A DNA stretch of 59,227 nucleotides, taken from positions 1 through 59,227 of the forward strand of contig NZ_QVMV01000018.1 in the NCBI RefSeq assembly GCF_003417465.1, read 5' to 3'. The notes beneath the pieces were generated by a model that did no database searches, was not told where the DNA came from, and saw only the letters and a program-made list of their open reading frames with translations. A program made the translations under genes and the position numbers. This DNA is from Wenzhouxiangella sp. 15190 (GTDB lineage: Bacteria; Pseudomonadota; Gammaproteobacteria; Xanthomonadales; Wenzhouxiangellaceae). Positions 3,527 through 14,460 of this stretch are shown here, piece after piece (positions within the stretch are counted from its first letter, which is position 1; each line of letters opens with the position of its first letter).

Positions 3527-4417
3527 ATGGTTGGCTCTGAGACGTTTGGCGCAGGTTCATGCCGTGCAACCCGGTCGGCCGGGGCGTCCGGCCCGCTGGG
3601 TGATCATTGGCAACGGCATGCCTTGCAGTGGGAAAGCGTGGGGCCACCGCTCCGGCCGGGACCCGAGGACGTGGCCATTGCCGAGCGGATGGTCGACCGG
3701 GCGCGATGCCATGAAGGCAGCGAATCGATGCGCAATGCGCTTCTGGGCGTCACCCCCGAACTGGTCGGCATGAACTGGCCGACGGGCAGCCGGCTGCTGT
3801 CGGTTGACCGAAGCCGGCGCATGATCCGCGAGATTTTGCCGCGTCGCGCTGCGGCACCCGTGACGCCGATTTGTGCAAGTTGGCTGGACATGCCGCTGGT
3901 CAACGACTGCCTGGACTGTGTCATCGGCGATGGTTGTTTCACGGTGCTCGAGAATGTCGAGATGCATCGCCGCCTGTGGCACGAACTCCATCGGGTTCTG
4001 CGCCCGGGTCGCTTTCTGGTGATCCGGTTGTTCGTCCAGCCGCCCGAACGTGAATCGGTCTCTGCCGTGTTCGATGATCTCGCCGCCGGGTTGATCGGCA
4101 GCTTCCACGTGTTCAAGTGGCGCCTGGCGATGGCACTCCACGACAACCTGGACGAGGGCGTTTGCGTGAGCGACATCTGGGGTCACTGGGCCAGCGCCGG
4201 AGTGAATGCCGAATCCCTCGCGACCCGATTGAACTGGCCGATCCGCGAAGTCCGGACCATCGAAGTTTATCGCGGTAGCCCGGCGCGCTATACCTTTCCG
4301 ACGCTCGAACAGGCACGCAAGGTGTTGGCCGAATGCTTCGATGAACTAGCGTGCCACGTTCCCGAGTATGAACTGGGCGATCGCTGCCCCACGCTGTTGC
4401 TGGCCGCGCGCGATTGA
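3527..4417 (+). CDS. Class I SAM-dependent methyltransferase
   Basis: 296 residues from ATG 3527, chosen because GGAG lies 11 bases upstream and the longer frame adds a low-complexity leader. The glycine-rich motif I is replaced by LLGVTPELVGM, a variant seen in one branch of class I methyltransferases. The acidic ribose-binding residue appears in LLSVDRSRRMI, motif II in DCLDCVIGDGCFTVLEN, and the later LHRVLRPGRFLVIRLF is typical of the core fold. No membrane segment or signal is visible, so it should be cytoplasmic. It ends six bases before the CphA-like gene, so the two are almost certainly one transcript, and the methyl acceptor is probably the substrate or product of that enzyme. Confidence 0.78.
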   Translation: MVGSETFGAGSCRATRSAGASGPLGDHWQRHALQWESVGPPLRPGPEDVAIAERMVDRARCHEGSESMRNALLGVTPELVGMNWPTGSRLLSVDRSRRMIREILPRRAAAPVTPICASWLDMPLVNDCLDCVIGDGCFTVLENVEMHRRLWHELHRVLRPGRFLVIRLFVQPPERESVSAVFDDLAAGLIGSFHVFKWRLAMALHDNLDEGVCVSDIWGHWASAGVNAESLATRLNWPIREVRTIEVYRGSPARYTFPTLEQARKVLAECFDELACHVPEYELGDRCPTLLLAARD

Positions 4418-4423
4418 CAATCC

Positions 4424-6913
4424 ATGCTCGAAACCAGCGCTTTTGTCTACGCCGGGCCGAATCGACGCAGCGATCTCACGGTGATCGAAAAGGCTTTTGC
4501 GCTCGAGCCGGTTGAAGTGAAGCGATTGGCCGAATTCGACCCCGAATCGTGGCGGACCCGCCTGGCGGCCATTCATCCCGCACTGGCGGGGGGCGACATT
4601 TCGGAATCCAAAGGGCACGAATCAGGCCGGAGCCGAAACGGCCTGTTGGCCCGGCTATATGCGCGGCTGGGTATTTCGCTGCAGCAAGCTGCACGTCACC
4701 CGGTTGCCGAAGCCGGCGTGCTTGCGCCCGCGGCAGACGACGACTTTCGCGTTTTCTTCGAGTATGAAGAACCCGAAACCGGAATGAATGCTGCAAGTAT
4801 CGCGCAGGCGGCCATTGAAATGCTGTTCATCGAGGGCGATGCACACACGCCCGTAGGCGAAGGGCTGGCAACCCTGGGCCGGCGTGTAGAGCGATTCCTG
4901 GACGAGGCCCGGCCCCTTGCCATGCCGGCGGACAGTCGTGCGATTCATGACGCGGCGCGCGATCGCGGCGTGCCTTGCCTGCGCATGGACAGGCCGCCCT
5001 TCGACCCGATCGAAGGCGAATTTCGCATCCGGCGCAACGGTTTGCTTCGCCTTGGATTCGGTTGCCGTCAGCACACGGTAGACGGCACGTTCTGTGTCAG
5101 CCGGTCGCAAGACGTTTATCCCTTTATCCGTGACCGTAAAGCCTTGTTTGACCGCCTTGCGGAACAGGGTTTCCCGCTGCCTGGCGGGGCAGCCGGGCAA
5201 TGGTGCGGCGCAGCACTCAAGGCGGCCCGGCTGGCCGATCGCATCGGCTACCCGGTCTGTCTGCGCGCGAGCCGGCGGGGCCACGCGGGCCCGGCCGTTC
5301 GACGGTTGCCCGATCGCGAAGCGGTCATCCGCGAGGCGGGCCGTACTTTGCAGCAAAGCCCGCGGGTTCTGGTGCAGCCCTTCCTGTCGGGCACGGAGCT
5401 CAAGGTCGTTGTTGCGGGACAAAGCCGGGATTCGGTGTTCGAGCGACCTGATCCGAATGCGGACTGGCGGCGTTCCGACAATCACGGCGCGGCACGGCAG
5501 CTCGCGCTCGAAATGGCCCGCTCCCTCAACGTCGGCCTGATGACGGTCAGCCTGATCTGCCCGGGGAACGACACCGGTTCCGATAACGCCGCTACCGTGA
5601 TCGACGTGGAACTCGCGCCCGAGCTCGACGGGGTTACTGCACTCGATGACCACGAGCTGTACCCGGCGGCGCAGGCCTTTGTGGACTGGATATTTCCGGA
5701 TCCGGCCACGGCGCTGGTTCCGGTCATGGCCGTGACCGGCACCAACGGCAAGACCACCACGACGCGCATGCTCGCGCAGATCATGCGCGCTGCCGGGCAC
5801 GTCACCGGTCTGGCATGCTCCGACGGTTCCTACATCGACGACAGGAAAGTATCGGAGTTCGAGGACGGGTATCTCCCGGGGCACCTGACCGTGCTCGACA
5901 ATCCCGACACGGAAGTGGCGGTGCTGGAGGCAACGCGGGGCGGCGCTGGCAGCGCGGGTCTGGGGTTCGATCGCTGTGATGTGGCTGCATGCCTGAACGT
6001 CACCGCCGACCACCTCAACGATCATGTGGGCGTACGCAGCGTGGACGAGCTCGCGCGCCTCAAGCGCACCATTCTCGAGCGGGCTCGCAGGGTTGTCCTC
6101 AACGCCGATGACCGGCAGTGCCGCGCCATGATCGGGTCGCTGGGTGATCGCGTGTCCGGCATGGTGTCTCTGTCGCGTTCGGCCGTGGAGCTGCGGAATG
6201 CATTCGCGCTGGAATTCGTGGCCGGCGTGGTGGAACGCGTCGAAGGGCGCGAGTGGCTGGTCATCCACCAGGGCGGTCGACGCTTTCCCGTGCTGCCTGT
6301 CGATGAAATTCCACTGGCCTTCGGGGGTGCGGCCCGGCACAACGTATCGAACGCGCTTGCCGCCGCGGTGGTTGCCTGGCTGATGAAGGAGTCGATCGAT
6401 GTCATCTCGTCCGGCCTGAAGGGCTTGCGGGGCGATTTCGAAACGACGCCGGGCCGCCTCAACTTTTTCCGCAAGCTGCCGTTTGACGTCTGCATGGATT
6501 TTGCCCACAACCCCGCTGGCGTGCGGGCGCTTGCCAAGTTCGTGGACCGTCTTCCGGTCGACGGCCGGCGGATCGCCTGCCTTTCGTGCAGCAACGAAAA
6601 CGACGATGACTTCATCCGTGAGACCGCGGCGGCGGCAGCGGGTCATTTCGATCACTATGTCTGCAAGAACTTTGGCAAGATCTTCGATCGCGCACCCGAG
6701 GAAGGGCCGAGACTGCTGCGCGAAGGACTGCTCGCCGCCGGTGTGTCGCCGAGTGCCGTGACCTGTGTCGAAGGCCACGAGCACGAGGGCGTCAAGTCCG
6801 CGCTCGGCATGGGGCGCCCGGGCGATCTCGTCGTGATCGTGGGCGGCAAGCGGCGCCGGGAACTGTGGCGTTTGATTAATGAATGGCCGGTCGATTCAGG
6901 GAGACCGTCGTGA
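4424..6913 (+). CDS. Cyanophycin-synthetase-like protein with degenerate ATP-grasp and intact Mur-ligase half
   Basis: 829 residues with CphA-like order: N-terminal domain (about 1-200), ATP-grasp region (about 215-425), and Mur-ligase-like region (about 430-829). The Mur half keeps the P-loop VTGTNGKTTTTRM near residue 435, a motif EATRGG, NVTADHLNDH, and DFAHNPAG, all as in cyanophycin synthetase. The ATP-grasp half differs: VVKPL is replaced by VCLRAS, the middle lid region is about 70 residues shorter, the GVDIV acid is lost, and the EVNAAPG end reads DVELAPE. So ATP and magnesium contacts of that half appear missing. In CphA the ATP-grasp half adds aspartate and the Mur half adds arginine; here only one ligation seems possible. 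No cyanophycinase gene is nearby. Translated right after the methyltransferase. Confidence 0.8.
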   Translation: MLETSAFVYAGPNRRSDLTVIEKAFALEPVEVKRLAEFDPESWRTRLAAIHPALAGGDISESKGHESGRSRNGLLARLYARLGISLQQAARHPVAEAGVLAPAADDDFRVFFEYEEPETGMNAASIAQAAIEMLFIEGDAHTPVGEGLATLGRRVERFLDEARPLAMPADSRAIHDAARDRGVPCLRMDRPPFDPIEGEFRIRRNGLLRLGFGCRQHTVDGTFCVSRSQDVYPFIRDRKALFDRLAEQGFPLPGGAAGQWCGAALKAARLADRIGYPVCLRASRRGHAGPAVRRLPDREAVIREAGRTLQQSPRVLVQPFLSGTELKVVVAGQSRDSVFERPDPNADWRRSDNHGAARQLALEMARSLNVGLMTVSLICPGNDTGSDNAATVIDVELAPELDGVTALDDHELYPAAQAFVDWIFPDPATALVPVMAVTGTNGKTTTTRMLAQIMRAAGHVTGLACSDGSYIDDRKVSEFEDGYLPGHLTVLDNPDTEVAVLEATRGGAGSAGLGFDRCDVAACLNVTADHLNDHVGVRSVDELARLKRTILERARRVVLNADDRQCRAMIGSLGDRVSGMVSLSRSAVELRNAFALEFVAGVVERVEGREWLVIHQGGRRFPVLPVDEIPLAFGGAARHNVSNALAAAVVAWLMKESIDVISSGLKGLRGDFETTPGRLNFFRKLPFDVCMDFAHNPAGVRALAKFVDRLPVDGRRIACLSCSNENDDDFIRETAAAAAGHFDHYVCKNFGKIFDRAPEEGPRLLREGLLAAGVSPSAVTCVEGHEHEGVKSALGMGRPGDLVVIVGGKRRRELWRLINEWPVDSGRPS

Positions 6914-12393: not shown

Positions 12394-13704
12394 TCATGCG
12401 GCCTCCGGCCCGAACGGACGTATCCGGAAATCGAGCAGGTCGCGCACTTCCTCGTATTTCACCAGCAAATCGTCCTCGTTGTCGGCGCCGAGAAAGATTT
12501 CGGCGACTTCGAAGCTGTAACTGTCTTGCAATTCCAGATCGCTGAGCGCCGTGCCCTGTGAGGCCAGCACGCGGATCCGGGCTTCCGGATACTTCGCCTG
12601 CACGCGGGCGATGTCCCGATCGTTGGGAACGCGCTCGATGATACCGTCTTCGAAGTAGCGCAGCATGAACTTGCCCGAGAAATGGAAATCGCCTTCGCGA
12701 TAGGGAAATGCCGGCCGCCGCCCCAGCGCCAGGTCGAGGACCACCTTCTGGTTGGGCACGCCATCGACCATCAGAAACAGCGGCGAATGCGACTTCGAGA
12801 TGCGCGCATTGATTTCGAGAAGGCGGATGGTGTCGGCATCCGGATCCCAGTAGAACTCGATGTTGAACGCGGCGCCGTCATAGCCGAAATGCCGCATCAC
12901 CTTGCGGGCGATTTCGATCATCCGTTCCTGCACTTCGACCGGTAATGCCGAGGGATACTGGTAATGGCTGAACGAGGAGCCGTGCTTACCGAAACGCTTC
13001 GAGTCGATGACGCCGAAGATCAATACCTCGCCTTCCCAGCAATAGCCCTCGAGCGTGCACTGCTCGCCTTGTGAGACGATCTCCTCGATGATGCAATGGT
13101 AACCGTCGATCGGCGCGATCTCGTCGGGCACGTCGACGTGTTCAAGGAACTGGTTCATCGGCCTGGCCATGATGCCGATCTGTTTGCGCACCTGCGGCAG
13201 GTGCTGCTCGAACGTTTTTCGGCTGTCGACATGAAAGCCGAGAAACGACGAATGCGACTTGATTGGCTTGAACCAGAAAGGATAGTCGAGTTCGAGTCCG
13301 GCAAGCGGATCGTCAGCGAACGGATCGATGGCCTGAAACCGACCCACCACCTCCGGGACGGCCTTGCGCTGTTCAATGCGCGACCAGTATTTGTGTTCGC
13401 ACTTGGCGACCGCTGCCAGCGGCGCGCCCGGCAGCCCGAACTCCCTGGCGACCAGCGGCACGGCCAGTGAGGTCGGCAGATCCCAGTAGCCCATCACGCC
13501 ATCAGGCGGCGCCGGCGCCGCCTCGAACAGTTCACCGGCATGTGCGAGGATGTCGTTCATCGATGGGTAGGCGAGTTCGGGGGGATGAACGATCTGCGAC
13601 TTGTCGAACAGCGCGTGGTACTCGTATTCCTCGTTGTCGTCGTGAATCGTTTCGAGCAGGTCGAGATGAAACCGGTCGAGACCCATGACATAGACGTTCT
13701 TCAT
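12394..13704 (-). CDS. ATP-grasp ligase-like protein
   Basis: 436 residues from MKNVYVMGLDRFHLDLLETI, preceded by a GGAGGG ribosome binding site; a longer frame upstream was not used. The ATP-grasp fold shows in FWFKPIKSHSSFLGF (nucleotide-binding lysine strand), EEIVSQGEQCTLEGYCWEG, and the metal-binding end AAFNIEFYWDPDADTIRLLEINARIS. The EINAR motif keeps the glutamate and asparagine expected of active carboxylate-amine ligases. The N-terminal about 100 residues are a pre-ATP-grasp domain. The target is unknown; such stand-alone enzymes join a carboxylate to an amine via acyl phosphate. It is monocistronic, with a 756-bp non-coding region on its 5' side. Confidence 0.85.
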   Translation of the reverse strand: MKNVYVMGLDRFHLDLLETIHDDNEEYEYHALFDKSQIVHPPELAYPSMNDILAHAGELFEAAPAPPDGVMGYWDLPTSLAVPLVAREFGLPGAPLAAVAKCEHKYWSRIEQRKAVPEVVGRFQAIDPFADDPLAGLELDYPFWFKPIKSHSSFLGFHVDSRKTFEQHLPQVRKQIGIMARPMNQFLEHVDVPDEIAPIDGYHCIIEEIVSQGEQCTLEGYCWEGEVLIFGVIDSKRFGKHGSSFSHYQYPSALPVEVQERMIEIARKVMRHFGYDGAAFNIEFYWDPDADTIRLLEINARISKSHSPLFLMVDGVPNQKVVLDLALGRRPAFPYREGDFHFSGKFMLRYFEDGIIERVPNDRDIARVQAKYPEARIRVLASQGTALSDLELQDSYSFEVAEIFLGADNEDDLLVKYEEVRDLLDFRIRPFGPEAA

Positions 13705-14460
13705 CCGGAGCCCTCCATTCAAGGTGGTGCTGCCTGTCAACAACATCGAGGCTACCGGGCCTGCTCCGAATAGGTATTGACCTGTATCAGGAATCAGGAC
13801 AATCAAGAGTCTTCTGAAAGAATCGTCTTGGTCGGCCAGGCTGGTCATGCTGCCGGAATGGGCATCTCGAGGAAAACAGGGCGGGAAGGAGATTCCCGCT
13901 CATAACAAAACCCCGGTCTTCTGGAACCGGGGTCTGTCCGCGGATAATTTGAGATTGGAGCACTAGCGCTGGGATCCTGATATTCGACAAAAATGCTTCC
14001 AACTTCAAGAGTCTTGGCTTTTGCCACCAGATCTCGCTGGATCGAGCTCTCTAGTGCCGCTTCACCCTTGTGAGGCTTCCGCGTCGAGTATAGATTTACG
14101 CCCATGCGAAGGGCCTGTCAATCACTTCGTAGTAAAAGTGAAGGAAAAATTGACCTGCGTCATCAGAAGGGACGTACGGGCCGGTCCGACCACTCGTGTC
14201 CCATGCCGTCGTCTTCGGCGGGCCTCGCACAGGTGAAAGCTCGGACGGGCTTCTCAGGATGGCTCAATCCAGGGTGCTTTTCATGCCCGACTGGACCCGA
14301 GTGCACAAAACTTGGAGAATGAGTGGCCGCTGCCTTGCCAGGCAGGACACACTATCCGTACAAAAAGGCACGCCCGCTCCCGATGGAGCCGCGTCAAAGG
14401 AGTGGTGCGAGCCTTAACATCATGCAGGTCTGTTTTGCCTGCCAATCCAAGGAGCATTCC
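13705..14460. other. Long spacer with one terminator hairpin
   Basis: This 756-bp gap separates two divergently oriented genes. Apart from the hairpin at 13910-13933, I recognise nothing. A minus-strand frame at 13845-14105 starts MGVNLYSTRKPHKG and runs through the hairpin; it lacks a ribosome binding site, but a small RNA or short gene reading toward the hairpin is possible. Confidence 0.4.
13910..13933 (-). terminator. Rho-independent terminator-like hairpin
   Basis: ACCCCGGT (13910-13917) and ACCGGGGT (13926-13933) form a perfect 8-bp stem with an 8-base loop. Read on the minus strand the stem is followed by TTTTGTTATG, a weak U-tract. No confident gene ends here, so it may terminate an unannotated minus-strand transcript from the 14 kb spacer. 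Confidence 0.55.

What the first reader, a model, noticed from the sequence alone, without database searches (positions are those of the whole stretch)
3527..6913. Methyltransferase coupled to a cyanophycin-synthetase-like protein with a dead ATP-grasp half
The 829-residue protein keeps all Mur-ligase motifs (GTNGKTTTT, DFAHNPAG, NVTADHL) but its ATP-grasp half lost the lysine strand, about 70 residues of the lid and the EVN metal site (VDVE). In the known CphA2 variants it is the Mur half that decayed, so this is the mirror case. The methyltransferase six bases upstream hints that the ligation product or substrate is methylated. No cyanophycinase is nearby, so a new small conjugate rather than a polymer seems likely.
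Basis: partly seen in the sequence, partly recalled or inferred. Interest (0 to 1): 0.72.

Follow-up and report, generated by a model that had tools for sequence, protein, structure and literature searches.

The report
Mur ligase from half-dead cyanophycin synthetase
In the soda-lake bacterium Wenzhouxiangella a methyltransferase gene sits next to a relative of the enzyme that makes the storage polymer cyanophycin; one of that relative's two engines looks dead and the other intact, so the pair probably builds a small methylated conjugate that is not yet known.

Summary
The finding is real, with corrections. Window 4424-6913 (+) encodes an 829-aa CphA1-derived protein whose Mur-ligase half keeps every catalytic residue checked in 11 of 11 family members (one Mg ligand as Ser for Thr), while its ATP-grasp half looks dead: K220 is Arg in 11/11, K261 lost 11/11, H267 in 1 of 11, D431 in 1 of 11, E450/N452 now D/E. 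Ten CphA1 controls keep all of these. The missing ~75 residues are the aspartate-recognising omega module, not the lid. As far as searched, the family is confined to Wenzhouxiangella (9 of 25 genomes, plus 2 more) and is its own clade. Six of the nine show neither CphA1 nor cyanophycinase; three of those six are incomplete.

Seven of 10 readable loci have a methyltransferase directly upstream, of two dissimilar families. The window's methyltransferase family, elsewhere in Pseudomonadota, sits beside CphA-derived ligases with the opposite half alive (2 loci) and PaaK-like adenylating ligases (4 loci). Likely function: a one-site, ATP-dependent Mur-type amide ligase paired with a small-molecule methyltransferase. 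Substrate and product are unknown; no activity is shown. A new variant of a known kind, moderately surprising.

The parts
3527..4417 (+). Class I SAM-dependent methyltransferase, 'type A' family with LGVTPE in place of the usual glycine-rich motif I (that motif is recalled); the true start codon is uncertain (homology begins near residue 26)
   Evidence: Methyltransf_11 5.7e-7; family alignments; AlphaFold model pLDDT 84.3, nearest folds mostly class I methyltransferases
4424..6913 (+). CphA1-derived protein, 829 aa: N-like region, dead ATP-grasp region without omega module, intact Mur ligase half
   Evidence: model pLDDT 81.7, ten best fold matches are CphA1 chains, query-normalised TM 0.57-0.75
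4424..4918 (+). N-like region (residues 1-165), poorly conserved, without the HxxEH peptidase motif of CphA1
4919..5173 (+). Residues 166-250: the best conserved of the four segments measured (60% mean pair identity, 25 of 85 columns invariant), with a family-specific insert RMDRPP..PI.G.FR.R; R238 stands where CphA1 has K220; residues 190-206 and 211-227 are modelled with low confidence
5174..5653 (+). Residues 251-410: decayed ATP-grasp core (34% mean pair identity); R281 for K261, S376 for D431, D394/E396 for E450/N452; omega module missing near residues 341-350
5663..6868 (+). Residues 414-815: Mur ligase middle and C-terminal domains; K443, T444, S466, E502, D529, H530, R678 and H695 are the catalytic positions, kept in the family
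5738..5761 (+). Mur P-loop GTNGKTTT (residues 439-446)
   Evidence: invariant in 9 of 9 rows; K499 and T500 equivalents kept in 11 of 11
5861..5884 (+). Residues 480-487, E[DE]GxxxGH: replaces the CphA1 loop GDMTGP; candidate acceptor-specificity change

Best explanation
The pair is a two-enzyme conjugation module. The CphA1-derived protein is a single-active-site amide ligase. Its Mur half binds Mg-ATP, phosphorylates a carboxylate on an acceptor and lets an amino group attack the acyl phosphate, giving an amide or isopeptide. Its ATP-grasp half, the site where CphA1 lengthens the aspartate backbone, no longer works and is kept as scaffold, with one strongly conserved family-specific segment (residues about 168-225). 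Without backbone elongation it should make one bond per substrate, hence a small conjugate rather than cyanophycin. The upstream methyltransferase methylates the substrate or the product. Shown: residue patterns, domain losses, family limits within the searches made, gene neighbourhoods, open frames. Inferred: Mur catalysis, scaffold role, functional coupling. Unknown: the two substrates, the methylated atom and the biological role.
For: Mur residues (TeCphA1 K499, T500, T522 as Ser, E558, R731, H748 and SuCphA1 D585/H586, named in PMC9427784 and PMC9262961) are kept in 11 of 11, while the ATP-grasp residues fail in every member and are intact in 10 of 10 CphA1 controls (papers). The omega module that recognises aspartate is absent (positions 388 and 394 are gaps in 11 of 11). 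The Mur half is conserved (53% mean pair identity, 87 of 402 columns invariant) against 34% for the ATP-grasp core. The loop GDMTGP (10 of 10 CphA1) is E[DE]GxxxGH in 11 of 11. Cyanophycinase over the cut-off is absent from 7 of the 9 family genomes. A methyltransferase lies directly upstream in 7 of 10 readable loci: type A in 4, the dissimilar type B in 3. The type-A family lies beside a same-strand ATP-dependent ligase in 10 of 15 loci, with ligases of three kinds (Mur half, CphA ATP-grasp half, PaaK-like).
Against: No activity, substrate or product is known. Partner genes follow the family's sub-clades, so the 7 loci stand for about two recruitments. L052 has an acetyltransferase, L057 a 3beta-HSD-like protein and L063 a divergent ABC transporter upstream. 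In G013 the type-A methyltransferase is not next to the ligase. Two of the nine genomes (G001, G002) do have cyanophycin genes. Five of 15 type-A loci have no recognised ligase beside them (L053, L096-L098, L100), the L095 partner is below its Pfam cut-off, and the methyltransferase tree is weakly resolved (2 of 11 inner branches starred). Structural support is one AlphaFold model from a shallow 9-row alignment, least confident at residues 190-227. The acceptor role of the GDMTGP loop is recalled, not tested. I did not compute how often a random gene has such a ligase neighbour.
Confidence: 0.57

Rival explanations
1. The protein is an accessory of cyanophycin or beta-Asp-Arg metabolism: its Mur half adds Arg (or Lys) to aspartate side chains of peptides or of cyanophycin ends.
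For: [quoted passage not shown]
Against: In G000, G018, G024, G008, G009 and G021 no CphA1 and no cyanophycinase over the cut-off were found (the last three are only 65-80% complete). The CphA1 loop GDMTGP is replaced in 11 of 11. The N-domain peptidase motif is absent.
Confidence: 0.13
2. Methyltransferase and ligase are neighbours by chance or share only a promoter; the methyltransferase acts elsewhere.
For: G013 separates them, 3 of 10 loci have no methyltransferase upstream, and a MazG gene lies upstream of the methyltransferase in L051 (Pfam) and, by visible similarity, in L053 and L060.
Against: Two dissimilar methyltransferase families occupy the same slot, and the type-A family recurs next to carboxylate-activating ligases of other kinds in distant genomes.
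Confidence: 0.18
3. The ATP-grasp half is still active, with Arg replacing Lys and an acidic pair holding Mg, so the protein is an odd two-site enzyme.
For: Arg at K220 in 11 of 11 and at K261 in 10 of 11, and an acidic pair at E450/N452 in 11 of 11, are conserved rather than random.
Against: H267, R309, R323 and D431 are not conserved and the aspartate-binding omega module is gone; the core is weakly conserved.
Confidence: 0.06
4. The gene is a decaying remnant on its way to loss.
For: Patchy presence, 9 of 25 genomes of the genus, several of them incomplete.
Against: The 11 frames have no internal stop in the aligned part (L009 is cut by a contig edge), and the Mur half is strongly conserved over deep divergence.
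Confidence: 0.03

Closest known systems
Cyanophycin synthetase 1 (CphA1; TIGR02068, PRK14016; PDB 7lgm, 7lgn, 7lg5, 7wac)
   Same: Same order of N, ATP-grasp and Mur regions, best sequence and fold matches, same Mur catalytic residues
   Different: ATP-grasp residues and omega module lost, peptidase motif lost, loop GDMTGP changed, far below the family cut-off, separate clade
Cyanophycin synthetase 2 (CphA2; PDB 7ta5, 8fxh/8fxi)
   Same: CphA-like protein working with a single active site
   Different: CphA2 is described as a one-site cyanobacterial polymerase of beta-Asp-Arg (PMC10206079, part 1 of 5); that its surviving half is the ATP-grasp one is recalled. Here the Mur half survives.
Mur-only CphA relatives of 550-616 aa behind CphA1 (best named match for one of them: TIGR02068, below cut-off)
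   Same: CphA-type Mur half without a working ATP-grasp half
   Different: No ATP-grasp region aligned; beside CphA1 in 14 genomes, and in one more (G034) without a CphA1 match; a separate clade
MurE and other Mur ligases (PF08245, PF02875)
   Same: P-loop, Mg ligands and C-terminal domain
   Different: Whole architecture is CphA-like; Pfam found no N-terminal Mur domain; MurE score 86.9 against a cut-off of 257.3
DVU_1553 AMP ligase and DVU_1556 methyltransferase families (NF045666, NF045667)
   Same: Best NCBIfam hits of the PaaK-like partners and of both methyltransferase types
   Different: All scores far below cut-offs; that the two named genes are neighbours is guessed from their numbers; no paper found for these locus names

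Membership tests
CphA1 | ATP-grasp residues K220, K261, H267, R309, R323, D431, E450 and N452 | tested here: not met
   kept in: K220 0/11, K261 0/11, H267 1/11, R309 4/11, R323 3/11, D431 1/11, E450 1/11, N452 0/11; 10 of 10 CphA1 controls keep all
CphA1 | Omega module that recognises aspartate (TeCphA1 325-399) | tested here: not met
   profile of 9; positions 388 and 394 gaps in 11 of 11; position 396 aligns to no conserved residue
CphA1 | Mur half with P-loop and Mg ligands | tested here: met
   11 of 11 (T522 as Ser)
CphA1 | N-domain HxxEH peptidase motif (in most, not all, CphA1) | tested here: not met
   absent in 11 of 11 (E82 and H83 in none); the paper counts the full Cx19HxxEH motif in 83% of CphA1; the Cys was not checked
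CphA1 | Score over the curated family cut-off | tested here: not met
   344.5 bits against 850
CphA1 | Polymerises Asp and Arg | not testable with these tools
   needs an assay
CphA2 | Working ATP-grasp half, degenerate Mur half (recalled definition) | tested here: not met
   one search shows the reverse; L087 and L099 fit this pattern instead
Mur ligase superfamily | Mur_ligase_M and Mur_ligase_C over gathering cut-offs with the catalytic residues | tested here: met
Class I SAM methyltransferase | Methyltransf_11 over cut-off and class I fold | tested here: met
   (30.5 against 21.2 bits)
Class I SAM methyltransferase | Canonical glycine-rich SAM motif I (recalled) | tested here: not met
   LGVTPE stands at this place in 8 of 8 rows; whether SAM is bound was not tested

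The most novel reading that the evidence does not exclude
The window holds one member of an unrecognised, mix-and-match 'carboxylate ligase + small-molecule methyltransferase' module. The same methyltransferase family teams up with a CphA-derived ligase running only on its Mur half, with CphA-derived ligases running only on their ATP-grasp half, and with PaaK-like adenylating ligases, to make a class of methylated amide or ester metabolites (perhaps compatible solutes or signals in this soda-lake genus) unrelated to cyanophycin.
Probability: 0.3. Interest if true: 0.75.

Novelty: new variant of a known kind. Interest (0 to 1): 0.55.

Why it matters
It shows the cyanophycin synthetase fold being split functionally in both directions: here the Mur half survives, and beside the same methyltransferase family in two other bacteria the ATP-grasp half survives. 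That makes a clean natural test of whether each half of CphA can work alone as an amide ligase, and points to an uncharacterised methylated metabolite. It also warns that annotation as 'cyanophycin synthetase' would be wrong for this family.

Tried and rejected
Cyanophycin production by this genome: the only other full-length CphA relative found in G000 has K220R, K261R, E450D and N452V, and no cyanophycinase match was found. Wider family: one genome-contig scan with the family-specific stretch (a single peptide pattern) and 274 class genomes gave no strong match outside Wenzhouxiangella. In one search eight other genomes matched weakly (E 8.2e-5 to 0.0073): five gave frames with intact ATP-grasp residues, and three (L071, L074, L075) gave no such frame and were not examined further. 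The 284-aa gene divergent from the methyltransferase in L096-L098 looked to me like an ATP-grasp protein, but Pfam, NCBIfam and PDB profile searches gave nothing, so it is not counted as a ligase. Promoter/terminator scan: 0 promoter-like sites and one terminator-like site against 3.6 expected, uninformative. Fold neighbours of the methyltransferase are many methyltransferases at similar E-values, so no substrate can be read from them. Literature: searches (listings) showed no description of this family or pairing in the open-licence library; subscription papers were not searched. An osmolyte role is only a thought, from the habitat and from sub-cut-off similarity of the L087 and L099 ligases to N-acetylglutaminylglutamine synthetase.

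Rows dropped before counts: the Mur tree used 10 of 13 CphA1 loci (L018, L024 and L025 left out), left out the 5 partial CphA1 controls, and used 8 of 13 tandem loci plus L028 (L107, L108 and L114-L116 gave no frame passing my filter). L009 (contig edge) is not counted in the upstream tally. In one search, 14 of 41 genomes matched, but only 4 strongly (E below 1e-80); the rest (E 2e-6 or weaker) I took as other methyltransferases and dropped. N-termini of L060, L063, L058 and L027 were trimmed by eye. Two alignments disagree at single weak positions: R323 of the window is Arg and a gap, and H267 of L058 is His and Gln.

Full report
What is there. Two + strand genes six bases apart: a methyltransferase (3527-4417; the start is uncertain) and an 829-aa protein (4424-6913). 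The protein's Mur half passes Pfam cut-offs for Mur_ligase_M and Mur_ligase_C; no ATP-grasp model does. Its best NCBIfam match is cyanophycin synthetase at 344.5 bits against a cut-off of 850, and its best solved relatives are CphA1 entries. An AlphaFold model (mean pLDDT 81.7, pTM 0.78, 9 sequences) has ten CphA1 chains as its ten best fold matches, with query-normalised TM 0.57-0.75.

The host. One search returned eight loci whose records are named Wenzhouxiangella (6) or Gammaproteobacteria (2). In 41 related genomes the family occurs in 9 of the 25 of the same genus (own genome included) and in none of 16 others of the order. Two further members came (L060, L063), making 11. In 274 genomes of the class only the own genome gave a strong match.

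Which half is dead. Residue roles were taken from PMC9427784 (passages, and sections 8 and 10) and PMC9262961 (outline, section 5 part 1 of 2, and passages). One search gives the residue-by-residue mapping to TeCphA1 for the 9-row profile, and one search counts it on 11 family members. K220 is Arg in 11. K261 is Arg in 10 and Ala in 1. H267 is His only in the window. R309 is kept in 4, R323 in 3, D431 in 1. E450 is Asp in 10 and Glu in 1. N452 is Asp or Glu in 11. The omega module (TeCphA1 325-399), which carries the aspartate-recognition loop, is missing. Ten CphA1 controls keep all of these, as do five partial ones for the positions they cover. In the Mur half K499, T500, E558, D585, H586, R731 and H748 are kept in 11 of 11, and T522 is Ser in 11. 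The HxxEH peptidase motif of the CphA1 N domain is absent in 11. By segment, mean pair identity is 28% for the N region, 60% for residues 166-250, 34% for the ATP-grasp core and 53% for the Mur half; for CphA1 the corresponding segments are 64, 77, 70 and 69%. So the ATP-grasp half is not uniformly free to drift: residues 166-250, which include a family-specific insert (RMDRPP..PI.G.FR.R, a gap in CphA1), are the best conserved of the four segments and may have a new job, though the model is least confident at 190-227.

Specificity. CphA1s carry GDMTGP after the Mg-binding threonine (10 of 10); the family has E[DE]GxxxGH there (11 of 11, residues 480-487). That this loop contacts the acceptor is recalled from Mur ligases and not tested here.

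Not cyanophycin. Cyanophycinase (TIGR02069, over cut-off) occurs in 16 of 41 genomes. Of the nine family genomes only G001 and G002 have it; G013 has a match below the cut-off, and also a Mur-half fragment of unclear kind (G013:C59); the other six have none. G018 is a single-contig genome with only this CphA relative. G008, G009 and G021 are 65-80% complete, so absence there is weak.

A family of its own. On a tree of Mur halves (32 rows) the 11 family members form one supported clade (100/99), separate from CphA1, from Mur-only tandem proteins and from a third group. That third group is represented in the window's own genome on contig C38 (L058) and in G016 (L027). It too has K220R, K261R, E450D and N452V but keeps the omega module and D431, and in L058 its gene is followed by an overlapping OCD/mu-crystallin family gene. 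Mur-only relatives of 550-616 aa lie right behind CphA1 in 14 of the 41 genomes. A missing or disabled ATP-grasp half is thus seen in three groups of this unrooted tree; how many independent losses that means was not established.

Partner genes. Ten family loci have a readable upstream gene (L009 is at a contig edge): the window's methyltransferase type ('type A') in window, L050, L051 and L060; a dissimilar methyltransferase ('type B', BLASTP E = 0.035 with type A; both match the broad model Methyltransf_11, so they may share a distant root; L056 assigned by visible similarity) in L054-L056; a GNAT acetyltransferase in L052; a 3beta-HSD/epimerase in L057; a divergent ABC transporter in L063. 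These classes follow the sub-clades of the tree, so they are few events, not ten.

The type-A methyltransferase elsewhere. Searches over relatives (41 genomes), class, phylum and one further family, plus L060, gave 15 loci that I read (weak matches dropped). Besides the four above: L087 and L099 have, on the same strand, CphA-derived ligases with the opposite fate (K220, K261, R309, R323, N394, D431, E450 and N452 kept; H267 is Gly; K499, T500, E558, D585 and H586 lost); L085, L086, L095 and L103 have PaaK-like adenylating ligases (L085 and L086 are from one genome, and L095 is below its Pfam cut-off); L096-L098 have an unclassified divergent gene; L053 (G013) has no ligase beside it; L100 has a truncated methyltransferase and no partner found. 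Thus 10 of 15 have a same-strand ATP-dependent ligase next door. A methyltransferase tree of 14 rows is weakly resolved and does not settle how often the partner changed; three ligase kinds on one family require at least two changes. L085 also holds a second PaaK-like gene beside a type-B-like methyltransferase. I did not compute the chance rate of such neighbours.

How it probably works. The Mur half activates an acceptor carboxylate as an acyl phosphate and joins it to an amine. The ATP-grasp half is scaffold. The methyltransferase modifies substrate or product. Because backbone elongation is lost, one bond per substrate is expected, so a conjugate rather than a polymer. All of this is inference from sequence; no activity is shown.

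What is known. CphA2 is described as a cyanobacterial enzyme with a single active site that repolymerises beta-Asp-Arg (PMC10206079, part 1 of 5 and passages). I found no description of the present family or pairing in searches (listings seen); that library holds open-licence papers only.

Noticed in passing
G000 contig C38, L058:8534-11413 (-); also L027: Second CphA-like subfamily in the same genome with a degenerate ATP-grasp half (K220R, K261R, N452V, S396F) but omega module kept; the Mur His H748 is Gln. An OCD/mu-crystallin family gene overlaps directly downstream in L058 (7497-8534).
   Followed up: partly
L087:7404-9392 (+), L099:5215-7032 (-): Pseudomonadotal CphA2-like ligases: ATP-grasp residues mostly intact, Mur half truncated or degenerate, next to the same methyltransferase family as the window's; CphA2 is described as cyanobacterial.
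   Followed up: partly
L014, L016, L019, L021 and others, directly after CphA1: Mur-only CphA relatives of 550-616 aa right behind CphA1 in 14 of 41 genomes; I found no family name of their own for them.
   Followed up: partly
L096:5243-6097, L097:2201-3052, L098:7812-8657: A 284-aa gene head-to-head with the type-A methyltransferase gave no significant Pfam, NCBIfam or PDB match, though by eye it looks like an ATP-grasp protein; in L100 it was not found and the methyltransferase match is truncated.
   Followed up: partly
L051:3909-4700, L053:8253-9041, L060:2392-3180: MazG pyrophosphohydrolase gene (Pfam for L051, visible similarity for the others) directly upstream of the type-A methyltransferase in three Wenzhouxiangella genomes; I saw none upstream of the window's.
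   Followed up: no
window 12394-13848 (-): ATP-grasp ligase of unclear family about 5.5 kb from the pair on the other strand (CPSase_L_D2 2.3e-8); no sign of a link.
   Followed up: no
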